A stretch of 64,000 nt of DNA from contig JEMY01000044.1 of assembly GCA_000585075.1 (NCBI GenBank), positions 101,446 through 165,445 of the forward strand. The letters run 5' to 3'. The translations under genes and the position numbers were made by a program. The stretch is from Candidatus Accumulibacter regalis. Lineage in GTDB: Bacteria; Pseudomonadota; Gammaproteobacteria; Burkholderiales; Rhodocyclaceae. The notes under the pieces are model-generated. The model searched no databases, had not been told where the DNA came from, and saw nothing but the letters and a program-made list of their open reading frames with translations. Positions 3,181 through 41,627 of this stretch are shown here, in pieces (the first letter of the stretch is position 1; every line of letters starts with the position of its first letter).

Positions 3181-3511
3181 GATCAGGCTCCTGTATCCGG
3201 GTCCAAGTTTCGGTGCGCATCGAGGCGCGATCTCTTGACGCATTCCCGCTCTTTTGTTGACGCAAGAGGCGGATGCGTGAGAGTGAAACGGACGAGAAAA
3301 GAAAACCGGGTCAAGTCGGGCTGGGTTTCTTTGTCGGTCGACAAGTTGGCTGCTGCACGGGCTCGGGAAGCGAGAGGCTGCCTTTCAGCTGCGGGTCTTG
3401 GGAGGTCAGCTACGTGCAAAGGCCAGTGAACGAGAGATATCGCCCGTGTCGGCGGCGGGCAGGGCCGCTATGCTGCCAGGCGCGGCCGTAGTGGCCGGAG
3501 CGCACCGGCGT
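3181..3511. other. Intergenic region upstream of the VWA lipoprotein gene
   Basis: About 330 bases without a supported gene. It must hold the minus-strand promoter for the VWA-sigma-anti-sigma group, but no clear -35/-10 pair could be picked out. Short reading frames here lack ribosome sites and coding character. Confidence 0.5.
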
Positions 3512-3691
3512 TCAGTGGCTGGTGAAGGCCTCGATCGGCGGGAAGGTGGCCGCGTGGCGTGTGATCCACTCCAGCGCGGCGGTATCGTCGTCGAGTACCC
3601 GTCCTTCGACGAGCAGCACTTCCTGGCGATAGTGCTTGATATGCTGGACCTGCTCGACCATGCGAGTGGCAAATGCGGCTTCGGTTTCCAT
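3512..3691 (-). CDS. Small hypothetical protein, 59 aa
   Basis: ATG at 3691 has a good AGGAG ribosome site a few bases upstream. The product begins METEAAFATRMVEQVQHIKH and ends PPIEAFTSH; it is acidic and probably helical, with no signal peptide or membrane segment. No family was recognised. It stands alone on the minus strand between the VWA gene and the heat-shock block. The well-placed ribosome site and sensible composition support a real gene. Confidence 0.55.
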   Translation of the reverse strand: METEAAFATRMVEQVQHIKHYRQEVLLVEGRVLDDDTAALEWITRHAATFPPIEAFTSH

Positions 3692-4023
3692 GTGGCTCCT
3701 ACCTTTGCGAATGCTCCACGCGGGTATCGTTAGCAAGATCCGAGCCGAAGCTGTATGTGTGAATAAAAACAGTGTGTTAGGGATTTTTGCCGAGAAAGGG
3801 CGGGAAAATATGTAAAGAACGTCGACAGCTGTCGGCGACGCCGCCGTTGCGGCGGGCGACGACCCTTGTCGCAAGGCGGGGGCGGCCCCCGGCGCCCAAG
3901 CCGGGGTCTGCGCAGCCCTCCCTGGCTGCCGGTTCCGTCGAACGCCGTAGCGTTGCCTGCATGCACCGCTACGCACGTGTCGTTCGTCGCCGGGGCGGGG
4001 GCGAGAACCCCCGCCCGCGAGGG
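3692..4023. other. Intergenic region with GC-rich hairpins downstream of the hsp20 genes
   Basis: No gene is supported in these ~330 bases. They contain the strong hairpin at 3993-4016 and a second one near 3893-3912 (CCCCGGC, 6-base loop, GCCGGGG). The part next to 3691 should hold the promoter of the 59-aa small gene. Confidence 0.45.
3993..4016 (-). terminator. Perfect 9-bp GC hairpin after the hsp20 pair
   Basis: GGGCGGGGG and CCCCCGCCC pair perfectly around a 6-base loop, 8 bases beyond the stop codon of the distal hsp20 gene. No T-run follows on the minus strand, so it may act as an mRNA 3' stabiliser or a Rho-assisted end rather than a classic intrinsic terminator. Confidence 0.5.
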
Positions 4024-4398
4024 TTACAAGACCTTGACCTGCACCTTGCGCGGTTGCGCGTGCTCGGCCTTGGGGATGCTGAGCTTGAGGACGCCGTTCT
4101 TGAACTCGGCGCCGACCTTGCTCGAGTCGAGTTCCTTGGACAGGGTGAACACACGCCGGTAGCGCGCCAGGCTGACTTCGGCGTGGTTACTCTCCATCCC
4201 CGCCGGTATCTCCAGGTCGACATCGCCTTCGATGGTCAGAGCGTCGCCTTCGACGTGCAGATGCAGCTTGTCTTTCGGGACCCCGGCGAGATCGGCGTAG
4301 AGGGTGATTCCCGAGGCATCCTCGATGACGTCGACGGGCGGCAGCAGCGCGGCGTCGTCACGGGTGTCGGGTTTGCTGACCGCAGTGTTTTCGGACAT
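4024..4398 (-). CDS. Small heat shock protein, Hsp20/alpha-crystallin family
   Basis: The 124-residue product is almost entirely an alpha-crystallin domain (about 20-115): a PPVDVIEDASGITLYADLAG entry strand, a DLEIPAG loop, and the conserved final-strand motif in which NGVLKLSIPK stands for GVLxLxxPK. It ends with basic residues. These proteins are ATP-independent cytoplasmic holdases that bind unfolding proteins. It is the second gene of a tandem hsp20 pair (11-bp gap) and so probably heat-induced from the sigma32-like promoter upstream of the first gene. Its short N-terminal arm differs from its neighbour, so the two may form mixed oligomers. Confidence 0.93.
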   Translation of the reverse strand: MSENTAVSKPDTRDDAALLPPVDVIEDASGITLYADLAGVPKDKLHLHVEGDALTIEGDVDLEIPAGMESNHAEVSLARYRRVFTLSKELDSSKVGAEFKNGVLKLSIPKAEHAQPRKVQVKVL

Positions 4399-27152: not shown

Positions 27153-27572
27153 CAGCTGCTCCTCTGTGACTTTTGACGTTCGGCCGGCAGGCCTGGACGG
27201 TAGCGGCCAGCGGCGGCAAACGCCTGGCCCGCGGCAGAGCATTCCGGGAATCGGCGGGCAGTATAGGTAGCGCTTGTGGCGCGCGTCAATCGACAAAGTG
27301 GCGGCGCGCGAGCCGTCGGGTGAAATGGCGGGCGATTGTCAGCCCGCTTCGCGGGTGAGCGCCGCACGCCGGGGAGGCGGAGTGCTGTTCAGGATGGTCG
27401 GCAGGCACCTCGGCGAGCGGCCGCATGAGCCGCCAGAACAGACTCATTTTCTTGTCCGCCACACGGCTTGCTCGCGCTAACAAGGCTTTCTGCTAAGCTG
27501 CCGACCGCAAGATCGCCGATTCGGGAAACCACCGCCGCGCCGCGCCGTGGAGCAAGCTTCTGTGGGCCGTCC
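27153..27572. other. Divergent intergenic region between pyk and the histidine kinase
   Basis: 420 bases with no supported gene. Promoters for pyk (minus) and for the two-component genes (plus) should lie here. No GGTGTAAC/GTTACACC site and no sigma54 promoter were found, so the regulator pair does not appear to control itself through the sites present in the phosphate region. Confidence 0.45.
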
Positions 27573-30200
27573 ATGTTTGACAATTTGCGAAAATACGCTG
27601 CCGCTTATTCCGTGGCCATCGGTGGAGTCCTGCTGACCTGCCTTTCCTCGTGGAACGTGCGCGAGGAGCTGCAGACCGGCCACCTCAAGGAATTCGAGTG
27701 GGCGGCTCGCGATCGTATCGAAGCCGTGCATTCGGTCGTAGACCAGGGGCTGGACGCCCTGCTCGAGCTGCGCGCGCTGCTGCACGCTGCACAGACGATC
27801 GACGAGACGGAATTCAGCATCTTCGCCGACTCGATCCTGCAGCGTCGCCCTTATATTGCCAGCCTGCTCTGGGTGCCGTTATTGCCCCTTGCGCGGCAGC
27901 AACCGTCGGCAGTGGTCAGCGAGATCGCCCAGGCAGCGGCAGCTGTTGCCGCGGCGGAAACCGACCCGGCGGCGAGTGGCAGCACGGAGTTGGCCAATCG
28001 TTCGCTCGTACGGCGTGCGTGGCGTGCGGGTTCCCGGCAGACGACCGGCGTCGAGCTGAACGCGACCAGCGAACTCACTGCCCTGTTCGAGCGCGCCAGG
28101 ACGAGCGGCAAGATCGCGGTCAGCGGACGCGTGGTCCCCCCGCGAGGCGAAAGCGTGCCGTTGATCTACGCGGCCCTGCCAGTCTATGCGTCGGGCACGG
28201 CAACGGGCGAGGTGAACAGCCGCAGGGCCGCTGATCAGGTGTCGCAGGCGCTCTTGGAGCCCCTGGGTTTCGTCGTCGGCGTCTATGACGTCGAGGAACT
28301 CGTTCATCTGGCCATCAGCGTGCTCGAGCCACGCGGCGTCGAGGTTCTGGTGCGCGACGATTCGGCCGGCGGCGACGCCGACTTCGTCCACTTCTACGCC
28401 AGCCGCCTCGAACCCGGTAGCGCGGCGACGGCCGATGGCGCCCTGCCCGAGCAGGACCAGGATCAGCCGCGGCTGGTCGCCAGGATAGCCGTCGGCGACC
28501 GCAACTGGTCGGTCACCGGAGTGGCCACGCATACCTTTCGCACGGCCGAGGCGTTCACCGAGGCGCACTGGCTGGTGATGGTCGGCGGCATCCTGTTTAC
28601 TGCCTTGCTCAGCTTCTACCTGGTGCGCAGTCGCCGCGAACTCGACAATCGCATTCGCTTGGCGCAGACGCTGTACGAGCGCGAAGAGCTGTTTCGTCAG
28701 TTGGCGGAAACGGTCGACGTCGTTTTCTGGGCCACCAACGCCAGCGCTACGCGTCTGGAGTATATCGGCCCGGCCTTCCAGCAGATTGCCGGGGAGCGGG
28801 CCTGGCTGGAACGTACTGCGCCATCCCTGTTGCTCGACGTTTTCGAGCCCGATGGCCGGCGCAAATTGAGCGCGGCGATCGCCCATCTGCAGGCCGACGG
28901 TGGGCAGTTCGCGGTCGAGCTGCCGCTGTGCTCGCCGGGCGACCAGGTGCTGCGCTGGTTGCGTGTCCGCGGCTTCCCGGTGCACGAAGCGGGTGACGAG
29001 CTGACTCGCATCGTCGGCTTTTGCCAGGACATCACCGAGCAGAAGCTGGCCGAGGACGCTCTGCGTGACTCGGAAGCGAAGCTGCGGGCGCTGTTCAACC
29101 ATTCTCCGGACATCATCTTTACGGTCGACGAGGAAGCCCGGATACTGCTTTACAACCGACCGTGGACGTACCCGGTCGGCGGCGCCGGCGAGAAGCGATC
29201 CGAATTGATTCTGCCGTCGGAGGTTCGCCAGCGTTACCTGGAGAAGCTCCGGCAAACATTCGCCAGCGGCCAGATCGAACACTGCCAATACACCACCGGC
29301 GATGCGACCTGGTGGGAAGTGCGCATGGTACCGACCGCTTCGGCGAACGCCGCCAACCTTCAGAACACGCTGATGGCCGCGATGGTGGTGATCACGGACA
29401 TCACCGAGAACCGCAAACTGCAGTGGCAGGCGATCCGGAGCGCGCGGCTGGCGTCGCTTGGCGTGCTGTCGGCGGGCATTGCCCACGAAATCAGCAACCC
29501 GAATCACGCGATCATGGCCAACGCGGCCTTGCTGGCCCGCATCTGGCAGGACGCCTTGCCGATCCTGCGCGAGTATGAGCAGGAGCAGGGGGATTTTCTG
29601 CTGGCCGGTTTGAGTCCGCGGCAGGCGCAAGAGATCGTCGCACGGGGTATGGGCGATATTGGCGAGAATGCCAAACGTATCCAGAAGATCATCGCCAATC
29701 TGAAGCACCTGGGCAAGCAGGATGGCGGGCAAATGGACGAGCTGGCGGACATCGGGCAGATTCTCAAGAGTGCGGTGACGCTGCTCGACGCGCGTATTCG
29801 CGAGCACACCGATGCCCTGATCCTCGATTTGCCGGACGGCCTGCCGGCAGTGCGCGGGAACGTCCAGCAGCTCGAGCAGGTATTCATCAATGTCATCGTC
29901 AATGCCCTGGAATCGCTGCCCGAGCGGAGCCGCTCGGTCAAGGTTTCCGGCAAGCTGGACAGCGCCGGCAGGCGGATCATTGTGCGCGTCAAGGATCGCG
30001 GCGTCGGAATGAGTGAGGAAGTCATGGCCCAGGTCGGCGAGCCCTTCTTCACCACCAAGTCCGAGAGTGGCGGCACCGGTCTGGGCCTGTCCATCTCGTC
30101 GTCGATCGTCGAAAAACACGGCGGCGTCTTGCGCTTCGCGGCGAACAAGAAGCTTGGCGCGACGGTAACCATTGATCTACCGATCAGCATGGAGAAGTGA
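27573..30200 (+). CDS. CHASE-PAS-PAS sensor histidine kinase
   Basis: ATG 27573 places a membrane segment (YSVAIGGVLLTCLSSW) at the N-terminus. A periplasmic CHASE domain follows (about 40-320; EFSIFADSILQRRPYIASLL is typical). The second span lies at ~331-350 (VMVGGILFTALLSFYLV). Two PAS domains follow (~375-495 and ~505-620), then the H-box LSAGIAHEISNPNHAIMAN with His638, and an ATPase domain with N-box VIVNALESLP, G1 DRGVGM and G2 GGTGLGLS. The insertion between H-box and ATPase domain (EQEQGDFLLAGLSPRQ) is unusual. The response regulator starts immediately after the stop. Confidence 0.9.
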   Translation: MFDNLRKYAAAYSVAIGGVLLTCLSSWNVREELQTGHLKEFEWAARDRIEAVHSVVDQGLDALLELRALLHAAQTIDETEFSIFADSILQRRPYIASLLWVPLLPLARQQPSAVVSEIAQAAAAVAAAETDPAASGSTELANRSLVRRAWRAGSRQTTGVELNATSELTALFERARTSGKIAVSGRVVPPRGESVPLIYAALPVYASGTATGEVNSRRAADQVSQALLEPLGFVVGVYDVEELVHLAISVLEPRGVEVLVRDDSAGGDADFVHFYASRLEPGSAATADGALPEQDQDQPRLVARIAVGDRNWSVTGVATHTFRTAEAFTEAHWLVMVGGILFTALLSFYLVRSRRELDNRIRLAQTLYEREELFRQLAETVDVVFWATNASATRLEYIGPAFQQIAGERAWLERTAPSLLLDVFEPDGRRKLSAAIAHLQADGGQFAVELPLCSPGDQVLRWLRVRGFPVHEAGDELTRIVGFCQDITEQKLAEDALRDSEAKLRALFNHSPDIIFTVDEEARILLYNRPWTYPVGGAGEKRSELILPSEVRQRYLEKLRQTFASGQIEHCQYTTGDATWWEVRMVPTASANAANLQNTLMAAMVVITDITENRKLQWQAIRSARLASLGVLSAGIAHEISNPNHAIMANAALLARIWQDALPILREYEQEQGDFLLAGLSPRQAQEIVARGMGDIGENAKRIQKIIANLKHLGKQDGGQMDELADIGQILKSAVTLLDARIREHTDALILDLPDGLPAVRGNVQQLEQVFINVIVNALESLPERSRSVKVSGKLDSAGRRIIVRVKDRGVGMSEEVMAQVGEPFFTTKSESGGTGLGLSISSSIVEKHGGVLRFAANKKLGATVTIDLPISMEK

Positions 30201-31631
30201 ATGAGAGAGCAATCCTTTGCCGGCTTGCCGGTCTTGGTGGTCGATGATGACCATTCAGTCCTGCACGCAACGGCGGCCGTTTTACATAGTGCCGGGGTGG
30301 CCAAGGTCCAGATGGTCGATGACAGCCGCGAACTGCTGCCGGCGCTCGAGCGGCAGCCGGCCAGCGCGGTTCTGCTTGACCTGTTCATGCCACATGTCAC
30401 GGGAAACGAGCTGCTGCCGGAGATCGTCCGCCTGTACCCCGAGTTGCCGGTGATCGTCATGACCGCCGCTCAGGATGTCGACACCGCGGTGCTCAGCATG
30501 AAGGAGGGCGCTTTCGACTACCTCGTCAAGCCAGTCGAGGAAAGTCGGCTGCTGGCGAGTGTCCGGCATGCTCTCGAAGTGCAATCGCTGCGCCGGCAGA
30601 TGGGGGCGCTCAAGCACTATCTTCTCTCCGATTGCCTGCAGAACGGCGAGGCTTTCGCCGGCATCGTTACCAACAGCCGCAAGATGCGGGCGCTGTTTCA
30701 GTATCTCGAGGCGGTTGCAGCTTCGGCGGAGCCGGTATTGATTTCCGGCGAGACCGGGGCCGGCAAGGAAATGTTCGCGCATGCCCTGCACAGGCTAAGC
30801 GGTCTGGCGGGTCAGTTTGTGCAGGTCAATGTCGCCGGCCTCGACGACACGCTGTTTTCGGATACCCTTTTCGGGCATCGCAAAGGCGCGTTCACCGGCG
30901 CGGACCAGAATCGCCCCGGCTTGATCGCGCAGGCCGGCGGCGGAACGCTGTTTCTGGACGAGATCGGCGATCTGTCTATGGCCTCGCAGGTCAAACTCCT
31001 GCGTCTGCTCCAGGAACACATGTACTTTCCTCTCGGATCAGACGTGGCGCGTCCCAGCGACGCCCGTGTCGTTTGTGCAACCAACCACAATCTCGCCCAG
31101 GCAATGCGCCAGAACCAGTTTCGTTCCGATCTCTTTTATCGTCTGTCGGTGCATCAGGTCGAGGTGCCGCCGCTGCGGGAGCACAAGGAAGACATTCCGC
31201 TTCTCCTGCAGCATTTTCTTGACGAGGCCGCCACGGCGATCAACAAGACCGGCCCCGAACCCTCGAACGAGTTGATCACGCTGCTCTCGAACTACCATTT
31301 TCCGGGCAACGTCCGCGAGCTGCGGGCAATGGTTTTCAACGCCATGGCGCTACATCGCGGTGGGTCGGTGCTGGCCATGGAGAGTTTCCGCGTGGCCATT
31401 CAGAAGCAGCAGAAGGCAAATATCGACGATTCCACGGCGGAACCGCCCGGTGGATTGCCGGTGATCATCCCGGGGCGATTTCCGACCCTTGACGAGGTCG
31501 AGGAAGCGATGGTCAAAGAAGCCTTGCGCCGAGCCGGGGGTAATCAGGGCATCGCCGCCACCCTGCTCGGACTGTCGCGTCCAGCGCTCAACCGACGCTT
31601 GGCGCGGCGCGTGCTCCAGGCCAATTGCTGA
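30201..31631 (+). CDS. NtrC-family sigma54-dependent response regulator
   Basis: The receiver domain has VVDDDHS and phospho-acceptor Asp60 (LLDLFMP), with Lys in DYLVKPVEE. The AAA+ domain has Walker A GETGAGKE, the sigma54 contact loop GAFTGA at residues 229-234, Walker B TLFLDEIG and the arginine-finger segment FRSDLFYRLSV. The C-terminal Fis-type helix-turn-helix is GNQGIAATLLGLSRPALNRR. It therefore activates sigma54 promoters when phosphorylated by the kinase encoded directly upstream (0-bp gap). Two sigma54 promoters with paired sites lie in the next 3.3 kb, which makes them the obvious targets. Confidence 0.94.
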   Translation: MREQSFAGLPVLVVDDDHSVLHATAAVLHSAGVAKVQMVDDSRELLPALERQPASAVLLDLFMPHVTGNELLPEIVRLYPELPVIVMTAAQDVDTAVLSMKEGAFDYLVKPVEESRLLASVRHALEVQSLRRQMGALKHYLLSDCLQNGEAFAGIVTNSRKMRALFQYLEAVAASAEPVLISGETGAGKEMFAHALHRLSGLAGQFVQVNVAGLDDTLFSDTLFGHRKGAFTGADQNRPGLIAQAGGGTLFLDEIGDLSMASQVKLLRLLQEHMYFPLGSDVARPSDARVVCATNHNLAQAMRQNQFRSDLFYRLSVHQVEVPPLREHKEDIPLLLQHFLDEAATAINKTGPEPSNELITLLSNYHFPGNVRELRAMVFNAMALHRGGSVLAMESFRVAIQKQQKANIDDSTAEPPGGLPVIIPGRFPTLDEVEEAMVKEALRRAGGNQGIAATLLGLSRPALNRRLARRVLQANC

Positions 31632-31803
31632 TCCGGCGAACGGGGTTTCCGCGCGCTCGAGGCGAGGTGGCACGCGCGGCCGCGCGACGCCACTCACGTT
31701 GACCTCGAATCATCCAGTGCTCCGCTCTGTCGCGGCCTGACGTCCTGCCATGGCCGATCGGCGCGGCGCGTCGTTGTCCACGGACGCTGGCAGGTTTACC
31801 GCC

Positions 31804-31811
31804 GGTGTAAC
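31804..31811 (+). promoter_or_regulatory. Putative activator site A1 (GGTGTAAC)
   Basis: GGTGTAACG here is repeated at 34682 and is the inverse of GTTACACC found 110 bases downstream at 31914. The local sequence also forms TGTAA-N10-TTACA. It is about 190 bases upstream of a sigma54 promoter, a usual distance for NtrC-type enhancer sites. Confidence 0.5.
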
Positions 31812-31910
31812 GTTGCGTCATTACAAAGCGGGCCTGGTGAGCGGCTGCGGTTCCGTTTTCATAAGCTTTTCCCGTCATTTGCAACGACTTTGACATGGCC
31901 GACAGTGCGT

Positions 31911-31923
31911 CTTGTTACACCCC
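31911..31923 (+). promoter_or_regulatory. Putative activator site B1 (CTTGTTACACCCC)
   Basis: TCTTGTTACACCC is identical over 13 bases with site B2 at 34790-34802. It lies 85 bases upstream of the first sigma54 -24 element. The core GTTACACC is the inverse of site A1. Confidence 0.55.
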
Positions 31924-31997
31924 TCATCGAGGGTGAGACGAGTCGCTTTCAAGCCCTGATTCGTGGTCTTTCCGGCTTTCCTTGGTAGTACACATTT

Positions 31998-32014
31998 CTG
32001 GCACGCAAAATGCT
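31998..32014 (+). promoter_or_regulatory. Sigma54 promoter P1 upstream of the first DUF47 gene
   Basis: CTGGCACG, 4 bases, ATGCT: the -24 GG and -12 GC are at exact consensus spacing (YTGGCACGrNNNTTGCW) with one mismatch. A start near 32025 would give a ~170-base leader before the gene at 32199. Confidence 0.65.
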
Positions 32015-32198
32015 TTCGTCGTGCTGGTCGGGGCCAGCTTAGCCGTCGTGCTGGCAGGGCTTTGTAGGGCCTGCGGCTGGTCCGCTGAACGAAGGATCTG
32101 CGCCTTGTTAGCCGCGATGCGATCAACATTGCCGTTCCGGCGTTGGTGGCGATTCAGACATTCGCGTTTGTCAATCTCTCTATTGGAAAGGCTCAATC

Positions 32199-32873
32199 AT
32201 GTCGGACTTAAGCATGGCGGCACCCTCAAGAATGGCTGCACCTTCGTTCACGCGCCGCATCCTGCACCGGGTGTTTCCGAAGGTGCCCGATTTTTTTGCG
32301 TTGCTCGTCGAGCAAAGTGCGCACGTGAATATGGCGGCCAGCCTGCTCGTCGAGTATATGGGCAGCGACAGTGCGCAGGCGACGAGCAAAATCGTCGAGG
32401 CGGAAGGTGAGGGAGATCGGCAGAAGGTTCGCAATCTGACGCTGCTGAACGAAGCTTTTTCGACGCCGATTGACCGTGAGGACCTGCACCGAGCGTTCAT
32501 CAATCTCGATGAGATCATCAACAGCTGCCACGCGATCATGGTCGACATGGAGGGCGAGGTGCAACCCTTGAAGCCGGACAAGGCGTGCCTGGAAATGGCC
32601 GTGTACCTCAAGGCCGGTGTCGAAGCCGTGGCGGCGGGCTTTGCCCGCCTGGGGAGCAATCCGCAAGCGGCCCGCGCCGACGCCGAAAAAGCCGACGTTG
32701 CCCTGAAGAGCCTGACGCGAACGCTTCGCCGGGCCTTGTCCGAGTTGTTCCAGGACAACGATTTTCACAACATCTTCAGGCGCAAGGAAATCTACACGCA
32801 GTTGAACCGGGCCGGGGAGCGCCTCAACATCTGCAACAGCACCTTGCTGGATATCGTCGTCAAGCTCTGCTGA
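32199..32873 (+). CDS. DUF47/PhoU-like protein
   Basis: 224 residues, all helical, of the DUF47 family related to PhoU: RRILHRVFPKVPDFFALLVE opens it, followed by KIVEAEGEGDRQKVRNLTLL and FIRR-like HNIFRRKEIYTQL. Four-helix PhoU-type proteins bind metals and control phosphate transporters. GGAAAGG precedes ATG 32199. It is not adjacent to a Pit gene but is followed by a CHAD protein, so it may act in polyphosphate or phosphate control. It is a distant paralogue of the DUF47 protein at 35192. Confidence 0.85.
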   Translation: MSDLSMAAPSRMAAPSFTRRILHRVFPKVPDFFALLVEQSAHVNMAASLLVEYMGSDSAQATSKIVEAEGEGDRQKVRNLTLLNEAFSTPIDREDLHRAFINLDEIINSCHAIMVDMEGEVQPLKPDKACLEMAVYLKAGVEAVAAGFARLGSNPQAARADAEKADVALKSLTRTLRRALSELFQDNDFHNIFRRKEIYTQLNRAGERLNICNSTLLDIVVKLC

Positions 32874-33147
32874 AGCAAGGCGGTCGGCAGGAGCGCGCTG
32901 GCGGAAAGGGCTTCAGCGGACGGGCGTATCTGACCTGCGGGTGCTGGCTCGGCAGCTGGTCGCGTTCCTCTTGCCGTCGGCGTGGAATGGCTGTCCCCGC
33001 GGTTGGTAGCCGATGTGCCCTTGCCGTATCGCTTCAGACGACGTTGATGGCTCACTCCTCTGCGCAGCCCGGCGTTGCGGTTGACCAGGCGAGTCGCCGA
33101 GTTGCAGCGGCACCTGGTGGCATGGGCCATTCTCGGGAGCCTGTCAG

Positions 33148-34611
33148 ATGGTCATCCAGACTGAACTCTGTCTTTCCCTGACGCCTGGGGTCGCCAATCG
33201 ACTGGCCAGGCATCCCCTGCTCAGCGACGCGACCGCTGTCCGCGAACGCATTGTCGACCTCTGTTACGACACGCCGGACCTTCGCTTGCGGCGCGAGCAG
33301 GTCCTTGTCCTATGTCGCAAGATTGGGGCCCGTTGCCTGGCCTCGGTGAGCAGGGCTGTACTGACGGATTTCGCTGCTCCGAAATGCGCCTGCCCTGCGC
33401 ACTGGGAGATCGCCAGAGAGGCTGGCGAGCCCGCCAGATTCGACTTCTCGCCGGTGACGGAAAGGCGCTTGCGCCAGTGGCTGCAGTCGCTGCACGCCGA
33501 CTTGCAGGTGACCTTCACGACCAGCTTTACCCGCAACGCCTGGCTGCTTCGACCGCACGAAGGCGTGCGCATCGAGCTGATGCTCGACCGTGGCTGGATA
33601 ATCTGTCTCGGGCGACGACAGGCGTTATGCGAGATTGGACTCAAGCTCGTTTCGGGATCGCCGAAAGACCTGTTTTCTCTTGCCAGCGAGTTGCAGACGG
33701 ACTTCTCGCTGCACCCGGAAGCGATCGCCAGGGTCGAGCGGAGCTACCGCGTTCTCGCCGACGAGTCGCTGCCGGCGGTCAAGTCGTCTCCAGTCCGGAT
33801 CGACGCCGGTACGTCCGCCACGGTCTACTTTCGGCGCATCGCGCTGGCCTGCCTGAGGCATCTGCAGAGCAATGAGCAGGGCCTGCGCCAAGGCGACGAT
33901 CCGGAGTTCGTGCATCAGGCGCGCGCGGCGATTCGTCGTCTGCGTTCGGCGATTCGAATCTGGCGGCCACTGCTTCCGAAGGATTTCGTGAGCCGTTTCG
34001 ATCCACGCTGGCGGACGCTCGCTGAACAACTCGCCGAGGCGCGTCACTGGGAGGTTTTTCTGACCGCGACCCTGCCGACGATCGCTGCGGATTTACCGGA
34101 GGGCGTGGCCAGCGCTCGCCTGGCGAACTACGCTCAACGGCGATCGGTGATCAACCGCGAGGCCGTGCGCAGCACGCTCCAGTCCGACGACTACTCGCGC
34201 TTGCTGCTCGGATTCACCGCTGCCGTGCTGGCGCTTCCCGAACGCGACGCGGCCTGCCTGGAAGCTCGTGCGCGGGCATTGCTCGACACCAGCGCCGCCG
34301 AATCGGGCCGGCTGGCGGCGCAGCTTCTTGCCGGCGATGACTCTGCCGCTGATCGTCTGCGAGCTGCGTACAAACGACTGCGTTACGCCCTGGAATTCTT
34401 CGCACCAATGTTTGCCGATCAATCTCGACGGGACGGTCGGGTCGCGGCCAATGGCCTGCCGGAACTGCTCGCGCGACTGAACGAACTGGCCCGTGCCGTT
34501 CACCTGACCGAGGAGGCGCTTCCCGGCGAGCCAGGCGAAGCCATCCGGGACGGCCTTGAACGGCGCAGGAAAGCGCTGTTGGCAGAGCTTCGCGCCGGGT
34601 CTTCTACGTGA
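33148..34611 (+). CDS. CYTH-CHAD domain protein
   Basis: The N-terminal ~205 residues are a CYTH (triphosphate tunnel) domain, with VRERIVDLCYDTPDLRLRR, CEIGLKLVSGSPKDLFSLAS and VERSYRVLAD recognisable. From ~225 the CHAD domain carries its His and basic helices (EFVHQARAAIRRLRSAIRIW, AYKRLRYALEFFAPMF). CHAD domains bind polyphosphate; CYTH domains hydrolyse or bind triphosphates. The canonical CYTH ExExK near the N-terminus appears here as QTELC, so triphosphatase activity may be lost. Lying between two DUF47 genes and beside pit, it fits a polyphosphate-granule role. Confidence 0.9.
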   Translation: MVIQTELCLSLTPGVANRLARHPLLSDATAVRERIVDLCYDTPDLRLRREQVLVLCRKIGARCLASVSRAVLTDFAAPKCACPAHWEIAREAGEPARFDFSPVTERRLRQWLQSLHADLQVTFTTSFTRNAWLLRPHEGVRIELMLDRGWIICLGRRQALCEIGLKLVSGSPKDLFSLASELQTDFSLHPEAIARVERSYRVLADESLPAVKSSPVRIDAGTSATVYFRRIALACLRHLQSNEQGLRQGDDPEFVHQARAAIRRLRSAIRIWRPLLPKDFVSRFDPRWRTLAEQLAEARHWEVFLTATLPTIAADLPEGVASARLANYAQRRSVINREAVRSTLQSDDYSRLLLGFTAAVLALPERDAACLEARARALLDTSAAESGRLAAQLLAGDDSAADRLRAAYKRLRYALEFFAPMFADQSRRDGRVAANGLPELLARLNELARAVHLTEEALPGEPGEAIRDGLERRRKALLAELRAGSST

Positions 34612-34681
34612 CTTCTGCCGTTCGCTCGTGCCGTCGCGATGCTGTCGATGACCAGGGGGTGCTGCCGCTCCCGGGCGCCCG

Positions 34682-34689
34682 GGTGTAAC
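34682..34689 (+). promoter_or_regulatory. Putative activator site A2 (GGTGTAAC)
   Basis: Same core as site A1 and similar flanks (GGTGTAACG, then a T-rich stretch ending GCCA here and GTCA at A1). It is 112 bases upstream of site B2, compared with 110 in the first copy. Confidence 0.5.
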
Positions 34690-34789
34690 GCTTTGCCACT
34701 TTGGGTAAAGCGCGCGAGAACCTTGAAGCGGACTGAATTGATTGACTAATCGCCATTGTTATTAGCCTCCCAAGGCGACGCGCCTGCTT

Positions 34790-34802
34790 TCTTGTTACAC
34801 CC
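34790..34802 (+). promoter_or_regulatory. Putative activator site B2 (TCTTGTTACACCC)
   Basis: 13 bases identical to the first copy, 87 bases upstream of the second sigma54 promoter (85 in the first). An adjoining dyad CCAGGAA-N7-TTCCTGG (34801-34821) is not shared with the first copy. Confidence 0.55.
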
Positions 34803-34879
34803 AGGAATGAGCTTTTCCTGGCGCGCTCGTCGGCCGCCAGGTGTCTGATTGGGTTCGAAAACCGAGAAAACTTTGGTGC

Positions 34880-34896
34880 CTGGCACGCAATGTGCG
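34880..34896 (+). promoter_or_regulatory. Sigma54 promoter P2 upstream of DUF47-pit
   Basis: CTGGCACG, 4 bases, GTGCG: a perfect -24 block and a -12 GC at exact spacing. A start near 34907 would give a ~285-base leader to the DUF47 gene at 35192. The sequence CTGGCACGCAA is identical to promoter P1. Confidence 0.62.
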
Positions 34897-35191
34897 TTAA
34901 GGCTCTGCGAGAAACGCTCTGCCGCGTTTGTTCGCGCCCGGCCCGGGAGTTTGCCGATAAAGGCGCGAGCGGGCGATCCGCCAGGGAAAGAATCAAGGCA
35001 GCCGGTTCGCTGGCCATTGAACAGCACTCTCGGGAACTGCGGTAACGCAGTGGTCGGGCGGCGAACCATTCGCCCTTCGCTTTTCGCGCTCGGCGTTGAT
35101 CGGAAAGATGACCTGGAGCATCAGGCAACGAAGCCGCCTGGCGGCCTAATTTTTAACGCGAGCATTTCCCCTCTCGCCAAAGGAGAAAGTA

Positions 35192-35851
35192 ATGGACAAG
35201 AGCAAGCTGCGTCTTTTTCACACCACCAAAGAAGTGGAAACGCACTTCGACTCATTTCTGGATACCGTTTCCCAAGGCGGCATCTCGTTCCGCTCCGGTC
35301 TGAACGCCTATCTGGAGTCGGCAGGGAATGGCGACATGGCCGCCAAGCTTAAGCAAATCAACGACCTGGAGCATAAAGGCGACGAGCTGCGTCGGCAGGT
35401 CGAGCATGAACTCTATACCCTGGCGTTGATCCCCGACTTTCGCGGCGACGTGTTGAGTCTGCTGGAGGATCTGGACGGCCTACTCAATGTCATGGAAGAC
35501 ACGATGGGCTCGCTCGACATCGAAAGGCCCGCTTTTCCGCAGGAGCTGCATGCTGACCTCCGGAAACTGGCCGAAAGCGTCGGCATGGCCGTCGAGACTG
35601 CGGTGATGGCGTCCCGGGCTTTCCTGCGGGACATTCAGTCGGTTCGCGACCACCTGCACAAGGTGATGTTCTACGAAAAAGAAGCGGACGGCCAATCGGA
35701 CAAGCTGAAGCGCGCCATCTTCGCTTCTTCCCTGCCACTGGCCGAAAAGTTGCACCTGCGCCGCTTTGTTGACCAAATCGACCATATTGCAGACGAAGCC
35801 GAGGACGTCGCCGACTGGCTGGCGATCTACACCATCAAGCGTTTGGACTAA
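35192..35851 (+). CDS. DUF47/PhoU-like regulator paired with Pit
   Basis: 219 residues, helical, of the TIGR00153/DUF47 family: MDKSKLRLFHTTKEVETHFD start, IKQINDLEHKGDELRRQVEH-like metal helix (KQINDLEHKGDELRRQ), and YEKEADGQSDKLKRAIF with a second acidic cluster. AAAGGAGAAAG precedes the ATG. The gene ends 21 bases before pit; DUF47-pit pairs are common, and the DUF47 partner is thought to regulate the transporter. It is expected to be expressed from sigma54 promoter P2. Confidence 0.92.
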   Translation: MDKSKLRLFHTTKEVETHFDSFLDTVSQGGISFRSGLNAYLESAGNGDMAAKLKQINDLEHKGDELRRQVEHELYTLALIPDFRGDVLSLLEDLDGLLNVMEDTMGSLDIERPAFPQELHADLRKLAESVGMAVETAVMASRAFLRDIQSVRDHLHKVMFYEKEADGQSDKLKRAIFASSLPLAEKLHLRRFVDQIDHIADEAEDVADWLAIYTIKRLD

Positions 35852-35872: not shown

Positions 35873-37360
35873 ATGGATCCTACGATATTCCTCTATCTGT
35901 CCAGCGGCTTGTTCCTGGGCTGGTCGCTGGGAGCGAACGATGCTGCCAACGTCTTCGGCACAGCGGTCGCTTCGCGAATGGTCAAGTTCACCACCGCGGC
36001 GATCATCCTGACGATTGGCGTGATTCTCGGTGCAATCGTCAGTGGCGCGGGTGCGGCGCACACCTTGTCGAAACTCGGGTCGATCAACGCGTTGGGTGGC
36101 GCCTTCATGGTCGCCTTTTCCGCTGCCGCGGTCGTCGCCTGGATGACCATCGTCGGTCTGCCGGTGTCGACGACCCAGGCGGTCGTCGGAGCGATCATCG
36201 GCTGGAACCTGTTCACCGGTTCGGTCACCGACTACAGCGTCTTCAAGACCATTTGCGCCACCTGGATTGCCAGCCCGGTGCTCACCGGCTTCTTCAGCTA
36301 CTTCATTTACAAAGGGGTGATGAAGCTGCTCGAGAAATCGCGCATTCACATCATCCGTCTCGATGCCTTGACCCGCATCGGCCTGGTCATCGCCGGCGCG
36401 CTGGGCTCCTACTCGCTGGGCGCCAACAACATCGCCAACGTGATGGGCGTCTTCATTGGCGCCAATCCGTTCCAGGATTTCCACGCCGGCGTGTTCGAGT
36501 TCTCCGGCCTGCAGCAGTTGTTTCTGCTCGGTGGCCTGGCAATTTCGGTGGGCGTCTTCAGCTATGCCAAGAGGGTGATGTTAACCGTGGGAACGTCAAT
36601 TGCCCCGCTGACGCCGGTCGGCGCCTTTGTGGTGATCATCGCCACCTCCCTGGTGCTCTTCCTCTTCGCGTCGGAAGGCCTGGAATATGCCTTGGCGTCG
36701 ATAGGTTTGCCGACGATTCCTCTGGTGCCGGTATCGAGTTCGCAGGCGGTCGTCGGTGGCGTCATCGGCATCGGGCTGATCAAGAACGCTCGCAACATCA
36801 AGTGGAGCGTCGTCGGGCGTATCGTCGTGGCCTGGGTTCAGACGCCGCTCGTGGCGGCGCTGGTTTGCTACGTTTTCCTCTTCTTTCTGCAGAACGTTTT
36901 CGGGCAGACGGTCTACAACCCTTCGCAGTATCGTCTGGCCAAAGACGTACTCGTCCATCGCGGCGATGCCGAGGACGCCAAGGCGCTTGCCGACGTGATT
37001 GGCAAGAGCTTCCCGACCTCGGGCCAGCTGAAGAGCGCCATCGACAAGGCGTTGCCAGATCTCGACGCGAAGACCGTGCTGCAGCTTGTCGACGACTCGC
37101 TGGTCGAAGAAATCACCGTCGATCCGGCCAAATTCAAGGTCCTGGAAAAACTGAACGTGATTGAAGCGGAGCGCCTGGACGCCTTGCGCACGCTGAGCGG
37201 CAAGACCTTCACCTACCGCTGGCAACTGATCGAGGCCCTTGCCAACCAGACGCCGGAGTGGAAGCTCAAGGAAAAAACCGTCCTCAACAAGCCGTACAAC
37301 AAGGAAATCCAGAAGGACCTCGACCTGGTGATGGATGCCTACGTTGCCAAAATGAAGTAG
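35873..37360 (+). CDS. pit: Low-affinity inorganic phosphate transporter Pit
   Basis: 495 residues of the PiT/PHO-4 family with the duplicated signature: LGWSLGANDAANVFGTAVA near residue 20 and SLGANNIANVMGVFIG near 185. GLPVSTTQAVVGAIIGW and VPVSSSQAVVGGVIGIG are the paired SxxQA hairpins. About ten membrane helices end near residue 345 (VCYVFLFFLQNVFG). A ~145-residue hydrophilic tail with no membrane span follows and is absent from short Pit proteins. It carries metal-phosphate in symport with protons, and works in reverse during polyphosphate breakdown in phosphate-accumulating bacteria. Confidence 0.93.
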   Translation: MDPTIFLYLSSGLFLGWSLGANDAANVFGTAVASRMVKFTTAAIILTIGVILGAIVSGAGAAHTLSKLGSINALGGAFMVAFSAAAVVAWMTIVGLPVSTTQAVVGAIIGWNLFTGSVTDYSVFKTICATWIASPVLTGFFSYFIYKGVMKLLEKSRIHIIRLDALTRIGLVIAGALGSYSLGANNIANVMGVFIGANPFQDFHAGVFEFSGLQQLFLLGGLAISVGVFSYAKRVMLTVGTSIAPLTPVGAFVVIIATSLVLFLFASEGLEYALASIGLPTIPLVPVSSSQAVVGGVIGIGLIKNARNIKWSVVGRIVVAWVQTPLVAALVCYVFLFFLQNVFGQTVYNPSQYRLAKDVLVHRGDAEDAKALADVIGKSFPTSGQLKSAIDKALPDLDAKTVLQLVDDSLVEEITVDPAKFKVLEKLNVIEAERLDALRTLSGKTFTYRWQLIEALANQTPEWKLKEKTVLNKPYNKEIQKDLDLVMDAYVAKMK

Positions 37361-37383
37361 ATGGCGTTGGCGGACAAGAGAAA

Positions 37384-38169
37384 ATGAGCGGTCTTGCCGT
37401 GGTGCCTGCCGTCACGCCAGTCAATCGGCAGACGGCGGTCGGGAATAAGCCAGCACTGGCGGGGCTTGCCGTGCTTGCGCGCGACGGCGTGACCTCGCTG
37501 CTGTCCCCGGAGTGGTGCGCGCCGGTCGCCTGGAGTCACGAAGGGTACCGCTACGACGTGCCTGAAGCGCCGGACGAGTCGCCGGAGCGCAGGCGCCAAC
37601 GTGAAACCGCCCGGCAGCTGGTGCGGCGCTCGCGGCAGAACGGTTTGCCCTTCTCTTTCGTTTCTGTCGCTGGCGGTTACGGCCACCTGCCGTGGCTTCC
37701 GCATGCGTTGGCTAGCGAAGGCGAAACCTTTCTGCTCGAGCGGCATCCGGATCACGCCGTCTATCTCGACGATCCGACGCTGGCCGTTGCGGCTGCCCGC
37801 TTGCCGATGGTGCGCGCGTCGCTGCGCTTGCGCACCAGCGCAGCACCCACGTCGCTGATCGCCTGGACGTCCGTTCAACCGGCGGCGCAATGGCGCCGGC
37901 TGTTGATCGCGGATGCAGGGGAGGGCAGGTGCAAGCTGCGGGCCGATTATCTGACCGGGCGAGTCTGGGTCTGGGACGGAAAATCGCCTTCAGCTTGCTG
38001 CTGGCACCTCCTCGTGTGCAGGGAGATGGATGGCGAGACGCTCAGGTTCTGCTTGTCCAATGCCAGGCCTGACGCCTCCTTGCGTGATCTGGCAGAAATG
38101 CGGGCGCAGGCGATTTCGCCGAACGCTGTCGCGACCGGGTCAAGAGCACGTGTCAACTGGCTGTGGTGA
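37384..38169 (+). pseudogene. Degenerate transposase fragment (IS701-like)
   Basis: The middle part resembles the catalytic region of DDE transposases of the IS701 type: FSFVSVAGGYGHLPWLPHAL around the expected D-G-Y-G, LLERHPDHAVYLDD, and VWDGKSPSACCWHLLVCREM before a CLSNARPD step. The first expected catalytic Asp is replaced (VAGGYG rather than DxGYG) and the C-terminal third is missing, with the frame ending at RARVNWLW. It lies just after pit and ahead of the IS21 insertion. A functional transposase is unlikely. Family assignment is from motif resemblance only. Confidence 0.55.
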
Positions 38170-39176: not shown

Positions 39177-39389
39177 TTAGAACGGCGGATCGGTGGTTTC
39201 GACGTTGCGGTCGGTCACCCGCAGCTCGCGGAAGCGGGTCTGCAAAGCGACCTCGTAGTGCGCCCAGATACGATTGCGTAAATCATCAAGCAACTCGATG
39301 ACCGCCAGCGCCTGATCCGGCGACCAGCGAGAGTCGATGAGCAAGTCGAGGCCGTCCTGCAAACCGGAAGGTGGATGATAGGGCTTCAC
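39177..39389 (-). CDS. IS21-associated small ORF, 70 aa
   Basis: A GTG start at 39389 overlaps the istB stop (GTGA). The product begins VKPYHPPSGLQDGLDLLIDS and continues with a helical QALAVIELLDDLRNRIWAHY. This small ORF recurs behind istB in one branch of IS21 elements. Its role in transposition is unknown. Confidence 0.75.
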   Translation of the reverse strand: MKPYHPPSGLQDGLDLLIDSRWSPDQALAVIELLDDLRNRIWAHYEVALQTRFRELRVTDRNVETTDPPF

Positions 39390-40138
39390 GTTGCCGCCTT
39401 CGCCGAGCGCTTCCTGGATCTGGCGGCTGCCTGTTCCTGTGCCTCCTTGCGCCGGTAGGAGTCCCCCTTGATGGCGAGAATCTCGGCGTGATGGACTAGG
39501 CGGTCGATCATCGCCACCACGCAGCTGGCGTTGGGAAACACCTCCGACCATTCCGAGAACGACTTGTTGGTGGTGATCAAAGTGCTCTTCTTCTCGTGAC
39601 GCCGATTGATCAACTCGAAGAGCAAGTCCGCGTGACGGTTCGAGTAAGACAGGTAGCCGACCTCGTCGATGACGAGAAGATCGGGCGCCGCATAGCGACG
39701 TAGCCGATAGCGCAGCGCCGAGTCACTGTCCAGGCCGGCCAGATCGCCGAGCAACTGTCCGGCGGTGGCAAACAACACCGTGCGCCCCTCCAGGACCGCC
39801 TGATGCGCAATGTTCTGAGCGATCATCGTCTTGCCCAGGCCACTGCTGCCGACCAGGAGGACGTTGGTCGTCGCCTGCAGGAAGTCCAGGGTCATCAGTT
39901 CGGCGATCGCGCGCTGATCGCATTGCTGCGGCCAGGCCCAGTCGAAATCGGCCAGCGGCTTGAAGCGTCCGATATGGGCGCAGCGCAGCCGTCGTTCGAG
40001 CGAGCGGCGCGCACGCTCGCCTTCCTCCCAAGAGAGCAAAGGATCCAGCCAGGGCTGCTCGGCACACTCGGCCCAGTGCGCGAGGAGGCCGTGCAACTGC
40101 AAAGCGGCCGCGCGTCGGCGGCGGGCATCATTCGTCAT
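39386..40138 (-). CDS. istB: IS21 transposition helper ATPase IstB
   Basis: 250 residues of the IstB/DnaC-like AAA+ family: Walker A GSSGLGKTMIAQ, Walker B LLVIDEVGYL, sensor region STLITTNKSFSEW, and a final arginine-finger-type RLVHHAEILAIKGDSYR. It assembles on target DNA and activates IstA. It overlaps istA by 11 bases, as usual. Confidence 0.96.
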   Translation of the reverse strand: MTNDARRRRAAALQLHGLLAHWAECAEQPWLDPLLSWEEGERARRSLERRLRCAHIGRFKPLADFDWAWPQQCDQRAIAELMTLDFLQATTNVLLVGSSGLGKTMIAQNIAHQAVLEGRTVLFATAGQLLGDLAGLDSDSALRYRLRRYAAPDLLVIDEVGYLSYSNRHADLLFELINRRHEKKSTLITTNKSFSEWSEVFPNASCVVAMIDRLVHHAEILAIKGDSYRRKEAQEQAAARSRKRSAKAAT

Positions 40139-41627
40139 CCGGCGTCCCTTCCATCAACTGGTCGTAGTCATCGAGCCTGTGCGGGCGCACCGGGACATCG
40201 CGCCGTTTCACATGCTCCGGCAAAGGCACCGCCAACGGCGGCGGTTCCGCCTTCGCCTGCCGGCGCTTCTCCAAGGCCAGACGAACCGCATTGGGATGCG
40301 GCACGCCGCGCCCCAGCGCGTCGGCAATCGCCACCGTCAGTTCGGCCACGCCGTAAGCTTCCAGCAGCTCGGTCAGCGCGCGCACCGTGCGTCCCAGCGG
40401 TTCGCCGCGTTCGACCGCTTGCGTCAGCAGCTCACGGCTTGTCGGCACCGCCTGCACCAGATGATCGGTGCCGCGATGCGCGGCGGCTTGATGCTTATGC
40501 GCGACCAGGGTCGCGATGTGCTCGGGGATTTCGATCTGTTGCCGGCGGTCATAACTGCGCCGATGGGTGGCGACCACGGTCTGGCCATCGAGGACGCGTA
40601 CCTGATCCAGGCTGGCGACGACGCTGAGCGTGCGCGCCACGCAGGTATGCGGGATCGAGTAGTCATTCAGGTCGAAGCGCACGTACGGCGTCTTGCCGGC
40701 GCAGACGGCCTTGACCTCGTCGGTCGGGAAGGCGTTCCCGGGTAGCGTCAGCAGGCGCGTTCGCTCCTGCTCGAAAGCCTCATGCACCGTCAGCGCCTCG
40801 TCCTCCGGGCAGCGCCGCTCCCCGGCAGGCCCGATGACCCAGGCGTCGGCCTGTGCATTCAAATCGTCCACATCCGTGAAGCGGCGGCCGGCGAAGAACG
40901 CATCGCGGATAAAACGCACGGCCCTTTCCACGCGGCCTTTCTCATTCCCCCGCGCCACTGCCACGGGGCGCGGCTCGAAGCGGTAGTGACCGGACAGGGC
41001 CAGCAGTGTCGGGTGAAAGCGGATCACCGAGCCCTGGCGCTCAAGGACCGCGCTCTTGAGATTGTCGTACAGGGCGACCCGCGGGCAGCCGCCCCAGGCG
41101 GTCAGCGCGCCGACATGGCCCCGCAGGAAGTTCTCCATGTGGGCGCCGAGGTAGAAGCGCAGGAAGATCTGCCGCGACCAGGAGAGGACGGCGACGAAGG
41201 CCATCAGGGGCCGGCGTGCCCGACCGATCTCCAGGTGGCCGAAGTGACCCCAGTCGACCTGCATCTGTTCGCCCGGCAAGGTGCGCAGCCGTAGATAGGC
41301 TTCGGCTTTCGGCCGCGGTCGGTGGCGGGCGATCAGGTGCCGGAAGTGATCCGGGCGCCCCGGATAACCGCGGCCCTTGACCATGTCGTACACGCGGGAG
41401 GCACGTAGGCGCGGAAACTGCGTCAAGGTATCGAGGATGAACGGCAGATAAGGATCGATCACCGAGGGCCGGCGAACCGGTCCGAGTGCCGGCAAGCCGG
41501 CTTGGGCGAGCACGCGGGCGACGCTGTCGCGATGCACTTGCAGTTGGGTCGCGATGGTGCCGATACGCCAGCGTTCGGCGTGGTAATAACGCAGGATCTG
41601 CGCTTCAATCTCGGGGCTGAGAGCCAT
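40128..41627 (-). CDS. istA: IS21 transposase IstA
   Basis: 499 residues. An N-terminal helix-turn-helix (ERWRIGTIATQLQVHRDSVA) is followed by the DDE integrase core: QVDWGHFG (first Asp), ALYDNLKSAVL (second Asp) and NEKGRVERAVRFIRD (Glu). A C-terminal beta-barrel/DNA-binding tail follows. Full length and intact catalytic residues indicate an active enzyme. Confidence 0.95.
   Translation of the reverse strand: MALSPEIEAQILRYYHAERWRIGTIATQLQVHRDSVARVLAQAGLPALGPVRRPSVIDPYLPFILDTLTQFPRLRASRVYDMVKGRGYPGRPDHFRHLIARHRPRPKAEAYLRLRTLPGEQMQVDWGHFGHLEIGRARRPLMAFVAVLSWSRQIFLRFYLGAHMENFLRGHVGALTAWGGCPRVALYDNLKSAVLERQGSVIRFHPTLLALSGHYRFEPRPVAVARGNEKGRVERAVRFIRDAFFAGRRFTDVDDLNAQADAWVIGPAGERRCPEDEALTVHEAFEQERTRLLTLPGNAFPTDEVKAVCAGKTPYVRFDLNDYSIPHTCVARTLSVVASLDQVRVLDGQTVVATHRRSYDRRQQIEIPEHIATLVAHKHQAAAHRGTDHLVQAVPTSRELLTQAVERGEPLGRTVRALTELLEAYGVAELTVAIADALGRGVPHPNAVRLALEKRRQAKAEPPPLAVPLPEHVKRRDVPVRPHRLDDYDQLMEGTPDDE

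What the first reader, a model, noticed from the sequence alone, without database searches (positions are those of the whole stretch)
31804..34896. Duplicated sigma54 promoter architecture controlling two DUF47/polyphosphate gene groups next to an NtrC-type two-component system
Two regions 2.9 kb apart share GGTGTAACG (31804; 34682), then TCTTGTTACACCC 110 or 112 bases on, then a sigma54 promoter CTGGCACGCAA...GC 85 or 87 bases further (31998; 34880). The two upstream sites are inverse copies of each other. The genes below are DUF47 and CYTH-CHAD from the first promoter region, and DUF47 and pit from the second. Immediately upstream of the first region is a histidine kinase and an NtrC-type regulator with intact GAFTGA. 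This suggests a dedicated sigma54 regulon for phosphate uptake and polyphosphate handling, separate from PhoB. I know of no described case, but cannot search for one.
Basis: partly seen in the sequence, partly recalled or inferred. Interest (0 to 1): 0.85.

Follow-up and report, generated by a model that had tools for sequence, protein, structure and literature searches.

The report
Sigma-54 phosphate-transport regulon in Accumulibacter
Bacteria that remove phosphorus from wastewater carry a sensor and regulator pair beside a conserved set of DNA switches placed in front of phosphate-transport and polyphosphate genes, which points to a dedicated and so far untested control system for phosphate storage.

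Summary
The window comes from a Candidatus Accumulibacter-type genome. A looser search found one more copy in the genome, before a SulP permease and beside a remnant of the regulator gene. The module occurs 38 times in 20 of 22 Accumulibacter-type sequences, with near-fixed geometry, heading operons for Pit, DUF47-like, CHAD and SulP proteins. It heads none of 46 operon-internal genes and appears in none of 9300 reversed control windows. IHF-like elements recur about 43 bp after each site. Gammaproteobacterial loci with the regulator's 57-66% homologue and the same recognition helix have the module in 9 of 12 cases, mostly before a Na+/Pi cotransporter. It appeared in none of 368 other class genomes, and in 1 of 146 other-genus family genomes (probably chance). 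Best explanation: a dedicated CHASE-kinase/NtrC-type sigma54 regulon for high-capacity phosphate transport and polyphosphate handling, with IHF-shaped promoters. Binding, signal, transcription starts and independence from PhoB are untested. I found no description of it in the open-access listings and passages I saw.

The parts
27468..30200 (+). sensor histidine kinase: CHASE extracytoplasmic domain, PAS domains, H-box AHEI, HATPase (start codon uncertain)
   Evidence: Pfam CHASE, PAS_4, HATPase_c; H-box at residue 672, TM-like stretch 366-384
30201..31631 (+). NtrC-type response regulator: receiver, sigma54-activating AAA+ with GAFTGA, Fis-type HTH
   Evidence: Pfam Response_reg, Sigma54_activat, HTH_8; GAFTGA at residue 229, Walker A 183, SRPALNRR at 459
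31804..31811 (+). module A, site 1 GGTGTAAC
   Evidence: conserved in relatives
31914..31921 (-). module A, site 2 GTTACACC (inverted copy)
31956..31961 (-). module A, weak IHF-like CTGATT, about 8 bp out of the usual register
   Evidence: offset 35; usual offset about 42-44
31999..32014 (+). module A, sigma54 -24/-12 element TGGCACGCAAAATGCT
32199..32873 (+). DUF47/PhoU_div protein (DUF47a)
   Evidence: PF01865 E 7e-8
33148..34611 (+). CHAD-domain protein
   Evidence: PF05235 E 2e-36; no CYTH hit
34682..34689 (+). module B, site 1 GGTGTAAC
34794..34801 (-). module B, site 2 GTTACACC
34845..34850 (-). module B, IHF-like CTGATT in the usual register
   Evidence: offset 44
34881..34896 (+). module B, sigma54 -24/-12 element TGGCACGCAATGTGCG
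35192..35851 (+). DUF47/PhoU_div protein (DUF47b)
   Evidence: PF01865 E 4e-22
35873..37360 (+). Pit-type phosphate transporter (PHO4) with a C-terminal extension
   Evidence: PF01384 E 9e-58, best stretch residues 20-331 of 495

Best explanation
A dedicated two-component sigma54 regulon. The CHASE/PAS histidine kinase senses an extracytoplasmic cue (inferred; probably tied to phosphate-replete or anaerobic/aerobic cycling conditions) and phosphorylates the NtrC-type regulator. Regulator dimers bind site 1 and the inverted site 2, about 111 bp apart. IHF bends the DNA near the middle of the site1-site2 interval and again near the middle of the site2-promoter interval, folding both sites onto sigma54 RNA polymerase at the -24/-12 element. 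The AAA+ ring then opens the promoter. Targets are high-capacity phosphate transport and polyphosphate-associated genes: DUF47a, DUF47b-pit and a remote SulP permease in this genome; also Pit2-DUF47a, CHAD and a DUF47-like/SulP operon in relatives; and a Na+/Pi cotransporter in gammaproteobacteria. Shown by sequence: the modules, their geometry, the genes behind them, and their occurrence with the regulator. Inferred: binding by this regulator, IHF action, positive control, and the signal.
For: Found without a sigma54 criterion, 33 of 33 site pairs read towards their target gene have their best sigma54-like element 83-96 bp downstream, score 31-34; the same 33 pairs read on the other strand score 22-29 at mostly scattered distances. 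Operon heads: DUF47b 7 of 7, DUF47a when first 3 of 3, ORF286 9 of 9, CHAD 12 of 15 (two of the three misses have a module), Pit2 10 of 17 (9 of 15 without two repeated contigs); internal genes 0 of 46; reversed windows 0 of 9300. IHF-like elements score 8 or more of 9 in 21 of 38 and 22 of 38 intervals against 37 of 1170 random windows, mostly at one offset (motif picked after seeing the sequences). Twelve gammaproteobacterial loci whose regulator (57-66%) has SRPALNRRL have the module in 9; a Na+/Pi cotransporter follows in 6, the contig ends first in 2, and L038 has another gene. Four gammaproteobacterial loci with a different helix (L044, L047, L058, L078) have none. Regulator orthologue in 26 of 28 genus genomes and 1 of 93 others at E 1e-140. 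Three-part pattern: 2 places here, none in 368 other class genomes. Looser pattern: a third module here before SulP, next to a remnant of the regulator's last 28 codons. rpoN present.
Against: No binding or expression data. Seven of 17 Pit2 rows lack the module (L024, L025 and its repeat L147, L027-L029, and a second copy in L020); ORFc when counted first lacks it in 3 of 3, SulP when counted first in 17 of 19, mostly behind ORFc. Three other Pit genes of this genome lie on other contigs, none at a module found here. The regulator gene looks broken (frameshift or stop) in L031, L042 and L075 although their modules remain. Magnetococcales homologues sit beside DUF47-pit but show no GGTGTAAC module. 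Several with SRPALNRRL (L050, L055-L057, L061) show no module in their loci, so the helix alone does not predict it. A module in gamma genome G599 has no phosphate gene in view. One other-genus family genome, G520, matched the looser pattern with a 39% NtrC-type frame about 2.4 kb away; I take it as chance because its sites are weak and no target gene is near.
Confidence: 0.82

Rival explanations
1. The promoters are real sigma54 promoters, but a different enhancer-binding protein (not the adjacent one) binds the sites; the adjacent pair controls something else.
For: The genome has many regulator-like candidates (86 in the first look of the regulator search in G000); modules persist where the adjacent gene looks broken (L031, L042, L075).
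Against: The module directly follows the regulator gene in many species, a regulator-tail remnant accompanies the remote third module, and the same sites occur with the homologous regulator in gammaproteobacteria while no other-genus family genome had the regulator and only one doubtful site set turned up in 146 such genomes.
Confidence: 0.1
2. The paired inverted sites are the ends of a small mobile element (MITE-like) that has spread in front of these genes.
For: Short inverted ends about 117 bp apart and several copies per genome.
Against: By eye the interiors of copies are not alike beyond the IHF-like positions, each copy lies 83-96 bp before a sigma54 element in the same orientation, and copies lie at heads of one functional class of operon.
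Confidence: 0.02
3. The regulon is real, but its physiological role is anion or energy balance during carbon uptake rather than phosphate sensing; phosphate genes are targets because Pi/H+ symport supplies proton-motive force.
For: A SulP permease with a cyclic-nucleotide-binding domain appears among the targets; a CHASE kinase suggests an external small-molecule cue; Pit efflux is proposed to drive VFA uptake (PMC4930944 and PMC12604563, passages).
Against: In gammaproteobacteria the main target is a Na+/Pi cotransporter, and DUF47/PhoU-type proteins recur in most Accumulibacter target operons.
Confidence: 0.3

Closest known systems
PolS-PolR of Microlunatus phosphovorus (PMC6754071; abstract and section 16 seen)
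   Same: two-component system of a polyphosphate accumulator that binds promoters of pit, pst and polyphosphate genes
   Different: kinase and regulator related to DevS-DevR (GAF kinase, HTH regulator), actinobacterial, reported site GTTCACnnnnnGTTCaC; no sigma54 mentioned in what I read
NtrB-NtrC and other NtrC-type sigma54 activators
   Same: receiver + AAA+ with GAFTGA + Fis HTH, paired upstream sites, -24/-12 promoter, IHF-like element (the use of IHF at sigma54 promoters is recalled)
   Different: scores far below the NCBIfam NtrC, AtoC and PEP-CTERM (TIGR02915) cut-offs (331.8/558.6, 328.9/714, 296.2/502.6); sites inverted and about 111 bp apart with an IHF-like element in both intervals; phosphate genes as targets
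PhoR-PhoB Pho regulon
   Same: controls phosphate transport
   Different: PhoB is an OmpR-type activator induced by phosphate starvation (recalled); here an NtrC-type regulator and low-affinity/high-capacity transporters

Membership tests
NtrC-type (group I) bacterial enhancer-binding proteins | receiver domain, sigma54-interacting AAA+ domain with GAFTGA and Walker A, Fis-type HTH | tested here: met
NtrC-type (group I) bacterial enhancer-binding proteins | ATP-dependent activation of sigma54 RNA polymerase | not testable with these tools
   needs biochemistry or genetics
sigma54 promoters | GG at -24 and GC at -12 with fixed spacing, upstream activator sites, rpoN in the genome | tested here: met
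sigma54 promoters | transcription start about 12 bp downstream of the -12 element | not testable with these tools
   no 5'-end data
NtrC, AtoC or PEP-CTERM (PrsR) response regulator equivalogs | score over the curated NCBIfam cut-off | tested here: not met
   331.8 of 558.6; 328.9 of 714; 296.2 of 502.6 bits
PolS-PolR | GAF-domain kinase related to DevS | tested here: not met
   kinase has CHASE and PAS and no GAF hit; PolS described
Pho regulon (PhoB) | Pho boxes (7-bp direct repeats) at the promoters | not tested
   no Pho-box scan was run
Pit accessory pair (DUF47-pit operon) | PhoU_div protein adjacent to a PHO4 transporter in one operon | tested here: met
   35192-35851 and 35873-37360, gap 21 bp; co-transcription not tested

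The most novel reading that the evidence does not exclude
This is a sigma54 phosphate-surplus regulon, acquired or assembled in the ancestor of Accumulibacter and lacking in the sampled sister genera, that switches on the Pit-based reversible phosphate transport and polyphosphate handling behind the polyphosphate-accumulating lifestyle. Its promoters are a new stereotyped type: activator site - IHF - inverted activator site - IHF - sigma54 element with near-fixed spacing, folding as two similar hairpins.
Probability: 0.4. Interest if true: 0.88.

Novelty: new variant of a known kind. Interest (0 to 1): 0.75.

Why it matters
What regulates the low-affinity phosphate transporters and polyphosphate cycling of Accumulibacter, the model organism of biological phosphorus removal, is not established in the passages I read. 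Pit is discussed there as possibly essential for the PAO phenotype and was not found in the related GAO Propionivibrio aalborgensis (PMC4930944, passages). A named regulator, a predictable binding site, exact promoters and a target list across species make the question directly testable, and would extend sigma54 control to a phosphate-transport regulon that also appears in gammaproteobacteria. The near-fixed two-site/two-IHF geometry is a useful model for how looping organises sigma54 activation.

Tried and rejected
Sigma54 consensus alone: no better than chance in the window. The first sigma54 scan used a wrong spacing and was redone (corrected). Mobile-element reading: rejected, because interiors look unlike and the context is constant. 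Known RNA families in 31600-35250: none up to E 0.1. Exact pairs in 3 of 33 non-genus genomes (L003, L004, L014) have no strong sigma54 element near (best 26-29) and are judged chance, as are three odd genus hits (L144-L146, scores 20-23) and G520. Magnetococcales: GGTGTAAC module not found; TGGCAC-type elements with an atypical -12 and an IHF-like element at -34 precede DUF47-like genes in L046, L048 and L059, with TTTTCACC at -84 (and -140), -214 and -73. This was 3 of 11 promoter-like matches in six loci, with the motif chosen after looking, so I treat it as a lead only. One row (L018, minus strand) was dropped from 39 to 38 because an inverted pair reads alike on both strands. A palindromic partner of the half-site is clear in several gammaproteobacterial site 1 copies (GGTGTAAC-N10-GTTACACC) but not in Accumulibacter.
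Full report
What is in the window. The regulator at 30201-31631 is 83-91% identical (best segment) to 21 loci, of which 18 come from records labelled Accumulibacter, 2 Pseudomonadota and 1 Dechloromonas (L015-L031, L042, L052, L075, L083). The genome has 4.63 Mb in 85 contigs. The gene order is: CHASE/PAS histidine kinase, NtrC-type regulator, module A, DUF47a, CHAD, module B, DUF47b, pit. The regulator has Walker A, GAFTGA and a Fis-type HTH.

Are the paired sites more than chance? In the window the pair occurs twice and in 0 of 100 shuffles. Genome-wide, GGTGNAAC N88-116 GTTNCACC has 2 places and the backwards control none. The exact 7-mer pair was found in 10 of 28 genus genomes and 3 of 33 others; the three others have no strong sigma54 element near. 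With one free base per site, 26 of 28 genus genomes have at least one pair: 47 places against 10 in the backwards-read control. Three of the 47 that looked odd were checked and lack a sigma54 element. Adding the sigma54 element, the three-part pattern hit only this genome among 369 of the class. A looser version hit 4 of 150 family genomes: 3 of the 4 genus members in that sample, and G520. The G520 match has weak sites, no target gene nearby, but an NtrC-type frame (39%) about 2.4 kb away; I take it as chance.

A third copy. The looser pattern also found a module in this genome on contig C13. It lies upstream of a SulP-STAS-cNMP permease (91% to the L022 protein), with a 28-codon remnant of the regulator's 3' end (75%) just before it. 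In L022 and L083 the regulator, the module and SulP are contiguous, so the C13 copy looks split off from such an arrangement (inference).

Geometry. With no sigma54 criterion applied, 33 of 33 pairs read towards their target gene have their best sigma54-like element 83-96 bp after site 2, scores 31-34. Random 250-bp windows have median 26, 95th percentile 31 and 99th percentile 33. A joint scan gave 39 rows; I dropped one chance reading on the opposite strand, leaving 38 modules in 20 of the 22 sequences given (window plus 21 loci). The two without were L025 and L052; L052 ends inside the regulator gene. Outer spacing is 115-118 bp in all 38; site 2 to the -24 element is 83-87 bp in 35 and 94-96 bp in 3. 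In both intervals an IHF-like element (WATCARNNNNTTR, consensus recalled and adapted after seeing the sequences) recurs about 41-44 bases after the site. Its score is 8 or more of 9 in 21 of 38 and 22 of 38 intervals, against 37 of 1170 random 78-base windows; the first interval is somewhat longer than those windows. The best hit falls in one 5-base bin on one strand in 20 of 38 and 26 of 38. In module A of this window it is weak and about 8 bp out of register.

Targets. In 31 Accumulibacter-type sequences scored together (the window, 21 loci, 9 fetched regions), modules head DUF47b 7 of 7, DUF47a-first 3 of 3, ORF286 (DUF47-like operon) 9 of 9, CHAD 12 of 15, Pit2 10 of 17, SulP-first 2 of 19 and ORFc-first 0 of 3. 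Genes classed as internal have 0 of 46, and 9300 reversed windows have 0. 'First' and 'internal' rest on a gap rule, and most SulP genes counted first lie behind ORFc. Two of the three CHAD misses (L028, L029) do have a module; the third is this window. Pit2 lacks the module in L024, L025, L027-L029 and in a second copy in L020. ORF286 and ORFc have no Pfam match; their DUF47 kinship rests on 25-29% tblastn matches. This genome has four PHO4-family genes; only the one in the window lies behind a recognised module. A Pit2-like gene on C6 (73%) with a DUF47a-like partner (48%) has none.

Beyond the genus. Twelve gammaproteobacterial loci carry a 57-66% regulator with the helix SRPALNRRL, as in Accumulibacter. 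Nine have the module: L032, L035, L036, L037, L040, L041, L045 and L082 with 107-112 bp between site starts, and L038 with 119 bp. L033, L034 and L039 have none. Four further gammaproteobacterial loci with another helix (L044, L047, L058, L078) have none either. Behind the module a Na+/Pi cotransporter follows in six (PF02690 confirmed in L032 and L041; by similarity in L036, L040, L045, L082), usually after a small protein. The contig ends first in L035 and L037; L038 has an unrelated small protein. A search of 16 genomes behind such loci gave one place each in 7 gammaproteobacterial genomes and in the L026 genome, none in 8, and 1 backwards-control match. Two of these places (L166, L169) differ from the modules already seen in those genomes; L169 is again before a Na+/Pi cotransporter, L166 is not. 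The kinases of L017, L032, L040, L041 and L078 have CHASE domains; those of L046 and L059 showed none. Magnetococcales homologues lie beside or near DUF47/pit-like genes in L046, L059, L048, L049 and L051, with the helix SRQTLNYRL and no GGTGTAAC module; other Magnetococcales homologues with SRPALNRRL (L050, L055-L057, L061) show no module either. The Chromatiaceae locus L078 also has DUF47b and pit downstream and no module.

Distribution of the regulator: 26 of 28 genus genomes and 1 of 93 others (G052, 55%) at E 1e-140 or better. G016 (90% complete) has neither regulator nor pair.

How it most likely works: see the best explanation. The fixed distances and the IHF-like elements near the middle of both intervals suggest two DNA hairpins that stack site 1, site 2 and the promoter; this is inference from spacing. 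The sign of regulation is inferred from the sigma54 activator class. The condition is a guess supported only by a report that pitA and polyphosphate-formation transcripts are higher at high phosphate in one experiment (PMC12604563 section 24).

What is known. Nine paper searches (open-access PMC only; several listings capped, for example 12 of 82 papers shown) combined Accumulibacter with sigma-54, RpoN, Pit, response regulator or regulatory controls, and sigma54/NtrC/RpoN with Pit, PhoU, polyphosphate or phosphate transporter, and DUF47 with Pit. No listed title or abstract start described this system. I read passages only of PMC12604563 (plus section 24), PMC8407102, PMC4930944, PMC3333781, PMC12316311, PMC3162934, PMC6446978 and PMC5193443; none of the passages links sigma54 to Pit. 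In PMC6446978 rpoN serves as a reference gene and the motif described is FNR. Two papers on Accumulibacter regulation and ancestry that I looked up are not held, so prior mention there cannot be excluded. PolS-PolR of Microlunatus (abstract and one section) is the nearest functional analogue and belongs to another regulator type.

Noticed in passing
L161:1599-1682 and 1702-4315 (G000 contig C13): A remnant of the regulator's last 28 codons precedes a full module and a SulP-STAS-cNMP permease gene, suggesting a rearrangement that split an ancestral regulator-module-SulP locus.
   Followed up: partly
L031, L042, L075 (regulator gene): The regulator gene appears interrupted (frameshift or stop) in three Accumulibacter records, while modules before DUF47-pit remain; real decay or assembly error.
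   Followed up: no
L166 (gamma genome G599): A further, high-scoring module with a GGTGTAAC-N10-GTTACACC palindrome has no phosphate gene in view; the next long frame found starts about 615 bp downstream and looks like an aminotransferase (by eye).
   Followed up: partly
L040:5018-5329, L041:16318-16635, L032:11863-12168: A small (about 100 aa) membrane-type protein lies between the module and the Na+/Pi cotransporter; the L040 and L041 copies have no Pfam match, the L032 copy was not run.
   Followed up: partly
window 37258-38169 and 39386-41627: A DDE_5 transposase-like frame just behind pit (Pfam), then frames that look like an IS21-type transposase pair (by eye), so the end of the pit operon borders insertion elements.
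   Followed up: no
L046, L048, L059 upstream of DUF47b-like genes: TGGCAC-type -24 elements with an unusual -12 and an IHF-like YTGATW at exactly -34 in three Magnetococcales loci, a lead towards sigma54/IHF control of DUF47-pit there with a diverged activator site.
   Followed up: partly
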